Positions 57,712 through 61,998 of a DNA stretch of 64,000 bases are shown here, in pieces (positions within the stretch are counted from its first letter, which is position 1; each line of letters starts with the position of its first letter). This DNA comes from Methanococcus voltae. GTDB taxonomy: Archaea; AGJL01; Methanococci; Methanococcales; Methanococcaceae. The notes beneath the pieces were generated by a model. It had not been told where the DNA came from and did no database searches. It worked only from the letters and a program-made list of their open reading frames with translations. Position numbers and translations under genes: made by a program. The DNA lies in assembly GCF_017875395.1 (NCBI RefSeq), contig NZ_JAGGMO010000004.1:66478-130477 (forward strand). Reading direction: 5' to 3'.

Positions 57712-58473
57712 TTATTTAACCATGGATTTCCATTTAAATTTCTTATCTTCTATATATCTTAATCCACGGTCTAAAACTATACCTATAATACCAATAACTA
57801 TCATAGCGGCCACAATAATATCCATTCTACTTAATGAGTATGCGTACATGATTAAATAGCCCAATCCGGAATCGCTCCCGGGCAACATCTCTGCTGCAAC
57901 CACACACATCCATGCAATACCTGCTCCGACTCTTAAACCTGTTAATATGCTCGGAGAAGCTGCTGGTATGATTACCTTTTTCAAAACGTTAGCTCCTGTA
58001 CAACCTAACGTTTTTGAAGCCTCTATCAAAATTTTTGGGACTTCTTTTACACCTGCGACGGTATTTATCAATATAGGGAAAAATGCACCTATGAATATGA
58101 TAAAAATTATTGAAACACCGCCTACACCAAACCAAGCTAAGGTTAAAGGAACCCACGCTAATGGTGGTATTGGTCTTAAAAGTTCTATAAACGTATCAAA
58201 AATGTCATTTATGGGCTTGTAATATCCCATCATAATACCCATAGGGACTGCAACTGCAAAAGCTACCAAAAATCCGGTTAAAACTCTTGTAATGCTTATA
58301 ATTGAGTTATCGATAATTGTACCAGTACCTAACAGAGTCATTGTAGGGTTTAACAATACTGCAATTATTGCTTCCAATCTGGGAATTACAGTTGGTCTTC
58401 CCACATAAATTGCAAAAACCTCCCAAGCAACGACTATTAATGCAGGCAATAGTATACCTTTTAAATTCTTCAC
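57712..58473 (-). CDS. SsuC/TauC-type ABC transporter permease
   Basis: 253 residues with about six membrane helices and the BPD permease EAA-like loop (E-A-S-K-T-L-G-C-T-G-A-N-V-L-K-K-V-I-I-P-A-A). GTG 58473 is chosen because GGTG lies six bases upstream; a GTG at 58482 would add three residues. It forms an operon with the ATPase 165 bases downstream. No substrate-binding gene is found nearby. Confidence 0.9.
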   Translation of the reverse strand: MKNLKGILLPALIVVAWEVFAIYVGRPTVIPRLEAIIAVLLNPTMTLLGTGTIIDNSIISITRVLTGFLVAFAVAVPMGIMMGYYKPINDIFDTFIELLRPIPPLAWVPLTLAWFGVGGVSIIFIIFIGAFFPILINTVAGVKEVPKILIEASKTLGCTGANVLKKVIIPAASPSILTGLRVGAGIAWMCVVAAEMLPGSDSGLGYLIMYAYSLSRMDIIVAAMIVIGIIGIVLDRGLRYIEDKKFKWKSMVK

Positions 58474-58951
58474 GAATGACACCTATTTATTATTAAAATT
58501 AAATTAAACTAAATTAAATACGATATTAGAATATAATATATGTTTAATTGAATTAAAACTAAATTTAAATGTATTTTAAATAATATAATATGGAATATAG
58601 TATATAAAGATTAGACATTAATGGAAAATTTTTGAGATAATTAGTGCGTATACGAAAAATAATAATATAATAATAGACTATAAGAAACATACTAAAAAGA
58701 GTAATAAAAAACTTCTTAAGATATATAAATTAGTAATATTTGCCAATATTCAATAATATTTAGTATACGACAGAATATTTTAAAAATAAATCCTGTTCCC
58801 CTGTAAATTACAAATTAGCTTGTAAATTAGTTGAATGAATGTAATCATATATTCGAATATCTAATACAATGAATATATACTTAAAGAATTAATTTTAAAA
58901 TAATATCTATGGTTAGAAAACCATGAACTCAAAAATAATAAAGGGGAGAAA
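58474..58951. other. Divergent promoter region before the PLAT genes
   Basis: About 480 bases of AT-rich sequence. A mixed-composition portion near 58790-58830 (cctgttcccctgtaaattac) is richer in C. No RNA gene is recognised. It holds the divergent promoters. Confidence 0.4.
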
Positions 58952-59800
58952 ATGGGTGTAAAATATAAAATAAACATAAAAACAGAAGATAGAAGATATG
59001 CTGGCACTGATTCAAATGTGTTCTTAAAATTATATGGGGAAAGAGGAATTAGTGAAACCTACAGGTTAAATAAATATATTAAAGGAAACGCTTTTAAAAG
59101 AAACGCGACAGACCACGTTGAATTAGATGTTGGACAAGATATTGGGGATATATATAAAATAAAATTATCTACCGACGGTAGATTTGCAGGTTCTGGCTGG
59201 TTACCTGACTTTATAACAGTTATAAACGATGGTTCCGATAGGCAAGAAACTAAATTCTTCGTTAATCAATGGCTTGATGGTAACGAAGTTGAGAGAAATG
59301 CGGTAAATTACAATAGTGCTTCAGTTGACCCTATTGAACAAAATTCGATATCCGTGGCGGGAGAAACTAAAATATTTGACAATAGGCAAGGTAACGAACC
59401 TATAGACTATAGCTTTAGATTTTTAAGTAAGTTTACGACTGAAATAGATTTTTTAGAAAAAACAGCTTCGACTATTTCGACAGGTACTGAAATAAAGGGT
59501 TCATTTTTAGATTACTTTGAAATGTGCGTAAAATTAGAAGCTACTGGGGCGGTTGAAAATCAGATTGCGAAAAAAATAGGCACTGAAGAGTTGATTGAAG
59601 AAAGCGTAGCTATGACAATCCCTGCAAAGGAAATGATTGAATTAACGCCTTATTGGGTAACAAACTATTATAGGGACATGGTTAGTATGGGCGATAGCTC
59701 TATAGAACTACTTGTACCTTATCAAAAGGAATTTGGCGGTTATAAGATAATTAGGATAGATGCTCAAAACAACCAAAATGTTATGGTAAATAAAAGGTAA
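58952..59800 (+). CDS. PLAT/LH2-domain protein, copy 1
   Basis: 282 residues. Residues ~3-110 form a PLAT (lipoxygenase homology) beta sandwich: Y-K-I-N-I-K-T-E-D-R, A-G-T-D-S-N-V-F-L-K-L-Y-G, D-I-G-D-I-Y-K-I-K-L-S-T-D and G-S-G-W-L-P-D-F-I-T-V. PLAT domains usually bind membranes or proteins and are better known in eukaryotes and bacteria. The remaining ~170 residues are unrecognised; they share I-D-F-L-E-K-T and E-L-T-P-Y-W with the neighbouring paralogue. No signal peptide. A GGGGAG site precedes the ATG. Confidence 0.8.
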   Translation: MGVKYKINIKTEDRRYAGTDSNVFLKLYGERGISETYRLNKYIKGNAFKRNATDHVELDVGQDIGDIYKIKLSTDGRFAGSGWLPDFITVINDGSDRQETKFFVNQWLDGNEVERNAVNYNSASVDPIEQNSISVAGETKIFDNRQGNEPIDYSFRFLSKFTTEIDFLEKTASTISTGTEIKGSFLDYFEMCVKLEATGAVENQIAKKIGTEELIEESVAMTIPAKEMIELTPYWVTNYYRDMVSMGDSSIELLVPYQKEFGGYKIIRIDAQNNQNVMVNKR

Positions 59801-60037
59801 AAAATAAAAATAAAAAAATAATTTAAAAATAATTTAAAAATATTTTTAAATCTATATTTTTCATACACCTCTATTATATGTTAATTATTTTAATAGATCA
59901 TACAAAATTATCGGCAAATACACAAATTACTCGTTAATGTACCATATTTATCAATTTAAATCCAATTTAACAAAATAAAAATAAAAATAAAAAAATAATT
60001 GAAAATTGAAAAAGTTAAATTGAAAAATGGTGAAAAT

Positions 60038-60907
60038 ATGCCGGAAGATGAACATAAAAGATATATTGTCCAAATAAAGACTCAAGACCGTAAATATGCA
60101 GGTACTGATTCGAATGTTTTTTTAAAACTATATGGTGACGTTGGAGTAAGTAAAAAATACATATTAAATGAATATTTAGCGGGTAATCCTTTTAAAGAAG
60201 GTTCCCTAGTTCAATTGGAATTGAATAACGGTAAGGATATTGGAGATATTTACAAAATAAAATTATCCACAGATGCGACAGTTGGAAATTCAGGATGGTT
60301 GCCAGAGTACGTCACTGTTAAGAATAAACATGGAAACAGTGCGGAAAATAAATTTTATATCAATGAGTGGTTAAATGGAAAAGAAATAGAAAGAAACTCG
60401 ATAAATTACAAAACACTACAAATTCAAATTACGGATGAGCAGTCTTTTTTAATTCCTGGTCAATCTAAAACTATAGACAATAGGGATGGTAGCCAGTATA
60501 ACCATCAAGAAATTGTTTTTACAAACAAATTCGTATACAATATTGACTATATAGGCAATGAGGTGTCCGGGATAGTCGATACTGAAGAGGATAGATTCAA
60601 AAATTTTGAATGGTTCAAACATAGGTTAGAAACTGAAGGTAAGGGTGCTTTGGAAAATCAAATGGGGAAAAAACTGGGATTTGAAGAAACTTTGTACAAA
60701 GAAGCGGATTTTTCACATCGTGAATATCAATATGAATTGTATGAATTAACCCCCTATTGGGAAACTAAGTACCATAGACAGCTTATTGAGATGGGTAGTT
60801 GTTCATTGAAAGCATTTGTACCATACTCTTGCGAATATTGGGGTTATAAGTTAACAATAACCGATAAAGAAAATAATCAAAAAGTTGAATGGCATAAAAA
60901 ACCATAA
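60038..60907 (+). CDS. PLAT/LH2-domain protein, copy 2
   Basis: About 289 residues from ATG 60038, chosen because GGTGA lies just upstream (the TTG start at 59999 would add 13 residues). Same architecture as copy 1: a PLAT domain (A-G-T-D-S-N-V-F-L-K-L-Y-G is identical) and a shared C-terminal domain with E-N-Q-M-G-K-K and E-L-T-P-Y-W-E-T. The copies diverge strongly in the C-terminal half. The pair probably arose by tandem duplication; each has its own spacer of about 200 bases. Confidence 0.78.
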   Translation: MPEDEHKRYIVQIKTQDRKYAGTDSNVFLKLYGDVGVSKKYILNEYLAGNPFKEGSLVQLELNNGKDIGDIYKIKLSTDATVGNSGWLPEYVTVKNKHGNSAENKFYINEWLNGKEIERNSINYKTLQIQITDEQSFLIPGQSKTIDNRDGSQYNHQEIVFTNKFVYNIDYIGNEVSGIVDTEEDRFKNFEWFKHRLETEGKGALENQMGKKLGFEETLYKEADFSHREYQYELYELTPYWETKYHRQLIEMGSCSLKAFVPYSCEYWGYKLTITDKENNQKVEWHKKP

Positions 60908-61077
60908 TCTCGGGATTAAAATAAAAAATAAGAATAATAAGAATAATAATATTAAAAGTAAAAAATAAAAAAGTAAGAATATAAAAAAGTAAGATATAAA
61001 ATAATTTAAAAATACTTTTAAATCACATATCTTCTTTTAATTTTCTTTTTTAAATTAATAATTTTAAAATTAATCTT

Positions 61078-61998
61078 TTAAAAGTTATAAAAGATTGTAC
61101 CTTTTAATAATACATTTGCACCGACGTGTACGTTGTTATATTCTGCAATAGGCTCACATTTTGCTTTGAATATATAGTATATTGGTTTTGAACTACTATT
61201 TTCATTTTTTAATAGCTCATATTCGGTTAAACTCTCGTAGTTACCCATACCTTTTGAAATAACAATGTCAGCGGTTTTAAATTCATTTCTAAACTCTTCG
61301 GAAGATTCTTCAAACCTTGTACCAATTACGTCTGTACCGCTGGTTATAACTTTTGTTATGTCAGTAATACCTGCTTCTATGGCATCTTCCATTGTAGCAT
61401 CGTTTAAAATTGGTTTACCTTTTACTGCAACTGTCACATCTGCATAATTCATCAATTCTTCAACTAATGGTCTATCAAATACTATTTCGCCGGCATTGTC
61501 ACAGATATATATTATTTTTGACTTTTCATTGCTTTTTTTGTTTTTTAAATCCTCTAAAAGTTCCTTTGAATAGTCAATATCTAAAATTCCTTCTATTGTT
61601 TGCTCAACCTTATGTTCGATATTATCTTTAGTCCCATAAGGTCCGAAATCAATTACATTTCCCGCAATTGCTAATTTTGCCTTATTTTGTAACCGTTTTA
61701 ATTCGTCCCCTTCGTTTACTTCATCGAGAATGGTTTTTGTGAGGTATTGCTTTGCATATACGTTTGCATTTCTCTTTAATTTCTCGTAAGGGTCTTTGGA
61801 ATTGCTGATGTCTTTTATATGTCTGTGTACATGGGTACCCATCCACGCAGGGACAGCTTCAGCACCATAAACATCGGTTATTTTCTGCATGGTGGATTTT
61901 ATTAACTCGAATTTCTTGGCGTCGTCGTCCGTTATTTCGTTTATTGCGTCAACTATTTGTCTACTTATACATATTGAGCATGATGGTTTTATTTTCAA
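61078..61998 (-). CDS. DUF89 damage-control phosphatase
   Basis: 306 residues of the DUF89/ARMT1-like family of metal-dependent phosphatases that clear damaged sugar phosphates. C-S-I-C-I-S-R-Q near the start is the archaeal subfamily's cysteine pair. The active-site D-N-A-G-E-I-V-F-D (about residues 168-176) and S-K-G-M-G-N-Y-E-S-L later are present. The start is TTG 61998, fixed by GGTGAT upstream. The specific substrate is unknown. Confidence 0.88.
   Translation of the reverse strand: MKIKPSCSICISRQIVDAINEITDDDAKKFELIKSTMQKITDVYGAEAVPAWMGTHVHRHIKDISNSKDPYEKLKRNANVYAKQYLTKTILDEVNEGDELKRLQNKAKLAIAGNVIDFGPYGTKDNIEHKVEQTIEGILDIDYSKELLEDLKNKKSNEKSKIIYICDNAGEIVFDRPLVEELMNYADVTVAVKGKPILNDATMEDAIEAGITDITKVITSGTDVIGTRFEESSEEFRNEFKTADIVISKGMGNYESLTEYELLKNENSSSKPIYYIFKAKCEPIAEYNNVHVGANVLLKGTIFYNF

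What the first reader, a model, noticed from the sequence alone, without database searches (positions are those of the whole stretch)
58952..60907. Tandem PLAT/LH2-domain proteins in a methanogen
PLAT domains are classical membrane- or lipid-associated modules, best known in lipoxygenases and lipases. Two adjacent paralogues carry the domain with a shared, unrecognised C-terminal domain (E-L-T-P-Y-W motif). Strong divergence of the C-terminal halves suggests different partners. The pattern of the C-domain (alternating strands after a basic helix) could be tested against beta-pore toxins, but no such claim is made.
Basis: partly seen in the sequence, partly recalled or inferred. Interest (0 to 1): 0.65.

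Follow-up and report, generated by a model that had tools for sequence, protein, structure and literature searches.

The report
Archaeal PLAT proteins with probable pore-former
Two neighbouring genes in a methane-producing archaeon encode proteins with a lipid-docking (PLAT) front half and a back half that, in one of the two, looks like an aerolysin-type membrane-pore-forming domain, a combination for which we found no match in the searched collections or papers.

Summary
Two adjacent genes, P1 (282 aa) and P2 (289 aa from ATG 60038), carry a genuine PLAT/LH2 domain (Pfam E 3e-20 and 4e-17; the PLAT half of the P1 model matches lipoxygenase and lipase PLAT domains) and share a 165-aa C-terminal domain unknown to Pfam, NCBIfam and PDB sequence search. 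An AlphaFold2 model of the P1 C-domain is poor (pLDDT 54), yet its 28 best PDB fold matches are all aerolysin-superfamily proteins. P1 residues 175-201 form two alternating amphipathic strands with an uncharged lipid face (shuffle p about 4e-4), the hallmark of the membrane-inserting hairpin. In P2 that face carries four charged residues, so P2 is probably a non-inserting partner. Both proteins lack a signal peptide. Among 394 related genomes only three species of this genus hold the protein or any PLAT domain, which points to acquisition, followed by strong purifying selection (dN/dS 0.045). A 2011 survey already listed an aerolysin-like protein in Methanococcus, so the domain in the genus is not wholly new; the PLAT fusion and the inserting/non-inserting pair appear to be. 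Pore formation and biological role are inferred, not shown.

The parts
58872..58880 (+). TATA-like box AATATATAC of the probable P1 promoter
   Evidence: identical in three species within a conserved upstream block; promoter role inferred
58909..58924 (+). palindrome ATGGTT-N4-AACCAT, probable operator or 5' UTR hairpin of P1
   Evidence: arms conserved, centre varied, in all three species; the only perfect match in the window; one other perfect match in the genome, inside frhB; none in the four congeners that lack P1
58952..59800 (+). P1: PLAT plus aerolysin-like C-domain protein, 282 aa, no signal peptide
   Evidence: dN/dS about 0.045
58961..59299 (+). P1 PLAT/LH2 domain (about residues 4-116)
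   Evidence: Pfam PF01477 E 2.7e-20; Foldseek to lipoxygenase PLAT E 1e-8
59303..59797 (+). P1 C-domain (residues 118-282), probable aerolysin-like pore-forming domain
   Evidence: strand order beta1, beta2, insert, beta3, beta4, beta5 in the model; 28 of 28 best PDB fold hits are aerolysin-superfamily proteins
59474..59554 (+). P1 putative membrane-inserting hairpin (residues 175-201: ISTGTEIKGSF / LDY / FEMCVKLEATGAV)
   Evidence: alternating hydrophobic and polar residues, outward face without charge, shuffle p 0.0002-0.0006; identical in all three species
60029..60033 (+). Shine-Dalgarno GGTGA of P2
   Evidence: sequence; GGTGG at the same place in G019
60038..60907 (+). P2: paralogue with PLAT and C-domain whose insertion segment is charged, 289 aa; probable non-inserting partner
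   Evidence: 43% identical to P1; outward face of the insertion segment has four charged residues; dN/dS 0.12; absent from G020

Best explanation
P1 is a leaderless, soluble two-domain membrane-attack protein. Shown: a PLAT domain at the N-terminus. Well supported but not shown: the C-terminal domain has the aerolysin-like beta-pore-former fold. Inferred: PLAT docks the protein to a lipid surface, the C-domains oligomerise, and the hairpin made by residues 175-201 (partly modelled as a helix in the soluble form, as in the helical insertion segment of the enterotoxin-type members) unfolds into a transmembrane beta-barrel whose lipid face is I/T/T/I/G/F and F/M/V/L/A/G/V and whose channel face is rich in Ser, Glu and Lys. 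P2 is a diverged tandem copy whose outward face carries Asp, Glu, Asp and His, so it should not insert; it most likely modulates P1 (mixed oligomers that stay inactive, or a decoy or immunity-like partner) or has kept only binding. With no export signal, the pore would act on the cell's own membrane from inside or reach others when the cell lyses; P1 is probably under its own regulated promoter.
For: PLAT. C-domain: the 28 best PDB fold matches are all aerolysin-superfamily proteins (Cry23Aa, C. perfringens enterotoxin, a Bacteroides pore-forming protein, Bombina aerolysin-like protein, lamprey immune protein, Dln1, Mpp75Aa, Cry51Aa, HA70/HA3, aerolysin), best probability 0.93; the same model against the viral library finds nothing coherent, probability 0.25 at most. 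Strand order matches the published core beta1-beta2-insertion-beta3-beta4-beta5 (PMC3110756). Alternation of the insert in P1, p 0.0002-0.0006, seen in 0.04% of comparable two-strand placements in window reading frames, and published as the best-preserved feature of the superfamily. The insert is invariant in P1 across species at dS about 1 and is, with beta2, the most diverged part between P1 and P2. A soluble-state amphipathic helix in the insertion segment is known for C. perfringens enterotoxin (PMC11774686). An aerolysin-like protein was reported in Methanococcus maripaludis C7 (PMC3110756).
Against: The C-domain model is of low confidence (pLDDT 54, pTM 0.45; the insert itself below 50), fold E-values are only 0.006 and above, and TM-scores are 0.22-0.34 among the best 28. 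No sequence or profile match to ETX_MTX2 or any other pore-former in Pfam, NCBIfam or PDB, though these tools are weak for this superfamily. No signal peptide. P1 evolves as slowly as its housekeeping neighbours, which is unusual for a weapon. The register of the alternation was chosen after looking.
Confidence: 0.6

Rival explanations
1. The C-domain has the aerolysin-like fold but P1 and P2 are no longer pore-formers; they are cytosolic membrane- or lipid-binding proteins with a housekeeping role (for example envelope stress or lipid handling).
For: No export signal, purifying selection as strong as in neighbouring housekeeping genes, P2 unable to insert by sequence.
Against: P1 keeps a strictly alternating, uncharged outward face in its insertion segment, invariant at dS about 1, which a mere scaffold would not need.
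Confidence: 0.22
2. The C-domain is a new all-beta fold, or an adhesin or lectin-like fold, unrelated to pore-formers; the fold matches reflect an elongated beta-rich poor model.
For: Low pLDDT and weak E-values; no sequence-level link.
Against: Weak chance fold hits would be mixed, but the first 28 are one superfamily while the viral library gives an incoherent list; the insert alternation is independent evidence.
Confidence: 0.15
3. A lipoxygenase- or lipase-type enzyme with a PLAT regulatory domain.
For: PLAT is commonest in such enzymes, and the best PDB sequence hits of P1 are lipoxygenases.
Against: Only the PLAT part aligns; the remaining 165 residues are far too short for a lipoxygenase and match no lipase or lipoxygenase family.
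Confidence: 0.02

Closest known systems
Aerolysin-like / ETX_MTX2 superfamily of beta-pore-forming proteins (aerolysin, lysenin, Dln1, Cry51Aa)
   Same: Predicted strand order with an insertion between beta2 and beta3; alternating amphipathic insertion segment in P1; an N-terminal binding module followed by the pore domain
   Different: PLAT instead of a lectin or other receptor module; no profile match; archaeal; no signal peptide; paired with a paralogue whose insert is charged
Clostridium perfringens enterotoxin / HA70 branch of the superfamily
   Same: Best probability in the fold search (0.93); an amphipathic helix in the insertion segment of the soluble form (PMC11774686)
   Different: The binding domain is C-terminal in the enterotoxin and N-terminal PLAT here; no detectable sequence similarity
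MmarC7_0032 of Methanococcus maripaludis C7 (Szczesny et al. 2011, PMC3110756)
   Same: Listed as an aerolysin-like domain protein in Methanococcus, the genus inferred for this window
   Different: Its sequence could not be fetched, so orthology is untested; the text of that paper mentions no PLAT domain
PLAT/LH2 domain proteins (PF01477: lipoxygenases, pancreatic lipases, clostridial alpha-toxin, polycystin-1)
   Same: The N-terminal domain by sequence and fold
   Different: No catalytic domain; in the family alignment the residues HNDFE of coral lipoxygenase read GNAFK here, so calcium-dependent docking is doubtful

Membership tests
PLAT/LH2 domain (PF01477) | Profile score above the curated cut-off | tested here: met
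   73.7 and 63.3 bits against 23
PLAT/LH2 domain (PF01477) | PLAT beta-sandwich fold | tested here: met
   Foldseek to lipoxygenase and lipase PLAT domains, E down to 1e-8, about 118 aligned columns
PLAT/LH2 domain (PF01477) | Binds membranes or a membrane protein | not testable with these tools
   needs a lipid-binding assay
Aerolysin-like pore-forming superfamily | Fold: twisted sheet with strands beta1-beta5 and an insertion between beta2 and beta3 | tested here: inconclusive
   The order is right in two models and the best 28 PDB fold hits are members, but pLDDT is 54 and TM-scores are at most 0.34
Aerolysin-like pore-forming superfamily | Insertion segment with alternating polar and non-polar residues (P1) | tested here: met
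   p 0.0002-0.0006, no charge on the outward face
Aerolysin-like pore-forming superfamily | Insertion segment with alternating polar and non-polar residues (P2) | tested here: not met
   outward face IDEDFNFHLTGGL with four charged residues; P2 is therefore not filed as a pore-former
Aerolysin-like pore-forming superfamily | Match to the Pfam ETX_MTX2 profile (PF03318) or another family profile (a convenience, not a defining feature: accepted members were found by more sensitive methods) | tested here: inconclusive
   no hit; the profile rang in no control genome, so its reach is unproven here
Aerolysin-like pore-forming superfamily | Oligomerises into a membrane pore | not testable with these tools
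   needs electron microscopy, leakage or channel recording
Lipoxygenase or lipase with PLAT | Catalytic domain | tested here: not met
   no such family; the C-domain is 165 aa
Known anti-phage defence systems (PADLOC) | Match to a PADLOC model | tested here: not met
   no match at E 1 or better

The most novel reading that the evidence does not exclude
An archaeal, cytosolic, inducible membrane-attack pair: P1 pierces a membrane by an aerolysin-type barrel guided by a PLAT domain, and P2, a duplicate that has lost the insertable hairpin, restrains or guides it. It would be a gasdermin-like self-lysis device or a lysis-released weapon of methanogens built from unrelated parts.
Probability: 0.25. 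Interest if true: 0.78.

Novelty: new variant of a known kind. Interest (0 to 1): 0.52.

Why it matters
Pore-forming proteins of archaea are almost unstudied. A methanococcal protein that joins a lipid-docking PLAT domain to a probable aerolysin-type domain, next to a copy whose insertion hairpin is charged, would be a clean natural experiment on what the hairpin does. Methanococcus is genetically tractable, so a role in self-lysis or competition is directly testable. At the least it warns that such genes, if annotated by their PLAT domain alone, would be taken for lipoxygenase-like proteins.

Tried and rejected
Lipoxygenase or lipase: rejected, only PLAT aligns. Known defence protein: no PADLOC match. 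Phage or plasmid origin: no relative of the C-domain in phage or plasmid records or viral contigs; no full-length relative in viral contigs or phages and only short or insignificant matches in plasmids; PHROGs only a chance hit. Wider relatives: two scans of genome contigs found none; the seeds were short peptides from five sequences, so distant relatives could be missed. ETX_MTX2 profile over 394 relatives: silent, but its control was silent too, so this says nothing. Using a Streptomyces locus as a search centre was not possible. DUF637 match (E 0.07-0.15) judged chance. The palindrome as a genome-wide regulon: the other perfect sites lie inside frhB and a trpD-like gene, so it looks P1-specific. 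Recent transfer by codon usage: P1 and P2 are ordinary for the window (ranks 19 and 36 of 54).

Full report
What is there. Two genes stand alone on the + strand between genes on the - strand: a binding-protein-dependent ABC permease (57712-58482) upstream and an ARMT1-like damage-control phosphatase gene (61078-61998) downstream. P1 is 58952-59800, 282 aa. P2 ends at 60907; its likely start is ATG 60038 (289 aa) behind a GGTGA ribosome-binding site, not TTG 59999. Neither has a signal peptide or a membrane helix by inspection: PLAT begins at about residue 4 of P1.

PLAT. Pfam PF01477 matches residues 5-111 of P1 (E 2.7e-20) and 9-116 of P2 (E 4.5e-17). The PDB sequence search finds lipoxygenases, polycystin-1 and a clostridial alpha-toxin over the same part. 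The fold search with the full-length P1 model is headed by lipoxygenase and lipase PLAT domains (E down to 1e-8). In the alignment to coral lipoxygenase the stretch HNDFE reads GNAFK in P1; as acidic residues of this region bind calcium in lipoxygenases (own knowledge, not tested here), calcium-dependent docking is doubtful.

C-domain. No sequence match in Pfam, NCBIfam or PDB. Two AlphaFold2 models built from the five sequences available are poor (pLDDT 59 for the full protein, 54 for the C-domain) but agree on the elements: short beta1 (132-144), beta2 (151-164), an insert with a helix (about 185-208), then long strands 213-223, 227-245 and 252-270. That is the published core order of the aerolysin superfamily: beta1, beta2, insertion, beta3, beta4, beta5 (PMC3110756). 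Foldseek of the C-domain model against the PDB gives no E below 0.006, but the best 28 matches are all proteins of that superfamily, enterotoxin and its homologues HA70/HA3 included, before the first unrelated one at rank 29. The same model against viral predicted structures gives an incoherent list with probabilities up to 0.25, a useful contrast.

The hairpin. The same survey names alternation of polar and non-polar residues in the insertion loop as the best-preserved pattern of the superfamily. In P1, ISTGTEIKGSF and FEMCVKLEATGAV alternate strictly: outward ITTIGF/FMVLAGV, no charge, mean hydropathy 2.18; inward SGEKS/ECKETA. Within-strand shuffles reach this in 2-6 of 10,000, and only 25 of 58,241 two-strand placements in the open frames of the window do as well (P1 itself is among those frames). 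The register was picked by eye, so the p-value is somewhat optimistic. In P2 the outward face is IDEDFN/FHLTGGL: four charged residues and an unfavourable interface energy. P2 should not insert. In C. perfringens enterotoxin the insertion segment is an amphipathic helix in the soluble form (PMC11774686), which would reconcile a helix in the model with a hairpin in the pore.

Evolution. A profile of the five proteins finds only three of 394 relatives (248 genera), all in this genus, and the PLAT profile finds the same three only. G019 has both genes, G020 only P1, with 58 bases left between the ends of P1 and the phosphatase gene. P1-P2 identity (43%) is far below orthologue identity (90-96%), so P2 was probably lost in G020. 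In the four other species of the genus the two flanking genes lie about 50 kb apart, so the locus is not shared. P1 is under strong purifying selection (dN/dS 0.043-0.047 for the three pairs), P2 weaker (0.12). P1's hairpin is identical in the three species, and within the segment 165-202 only one residue differs in each comparison, while that segment is among the most diverged between P1 and P2 (26% identity, against 57.5% in PLAT). Codon usage is native. The picture is an old acquisition (donor unknown), duplication, and a split of function.

Regulation. Upstream of P1 a block with TATA-like AATATATAC (58872-58880) and the palindrome ATGGTT-N4-AACCAT (58909-58924) is conserved in all three species although much of the rest of the spacer has drifted. 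The palindrome is absent from the four congeners without P1, and the other perfect copies in G000 and G020 lie inside unrelated genes. Its place just downstream of the expected transcription start fits a repressor site; a 5' UTR hairpin is possible. Role inferred.

How it works. Shown: PLAT, paralogy, distribution, selection. Supported: aerolysin-like C-domain (about 0.8 on all evidence), insertable hairpin in P1 and not in P2. Inferred: docking by PLAT, oligomerisation, barrel insertion, modulation by P2, and action on the cell's own membrane or on neighbours after lysis. Absence of an export signal and slow evolution leave room for a non-lytic role, hence 0.6 for the whole mechanism.

Relation to the known. 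Szczesny et al. 2011 list MmarC7_0032 of Methanococcus maripaludis C7 among newly found aerolysin-like proteins, one of three euryarchaeal ones they count. No paper in the library holds both 'PLAT domain' and 'aerolysin', which is weak evidence, since subscription papers are missing. That the window is Methanococcus is itself an inference (methanogen genes; 28% G+C; genome size and number of relatives). I therefore rate this a new variant of a known kind: known domains, in a combination and a pair not found described.

Noticed in passing
58909-58924: Palindrome ATGGTT-N4-AACCAT conserved upstream of P1 in three species, absent from the four congeners without P1; probable P1-specific operator or 5' UTR hairpin.
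   Followed up: partly
L004:1421-1480: In G020 the second paralogue is missing without trace: 58 bases separate the ends of P1 and of the ARMT1-like gene, and P1 has a slightly different C-terminus.
   Followed up: partly
57712-61998: The genes on either side of the pair are neighbours of it in three species but about 50 kb from each other in the other four species of the genus, so the region has been rearranged.
   Followed up: partly
58540-58612: A second block of the P1-permease spacer is almost unchanged between the three species (ATGTTTAATTGAATTAAAACTAA...GGAATATAGTATATAAAGATTA), probably the promoter and regulatory site of the divergent ABC transporter genes.
   Followed up: no
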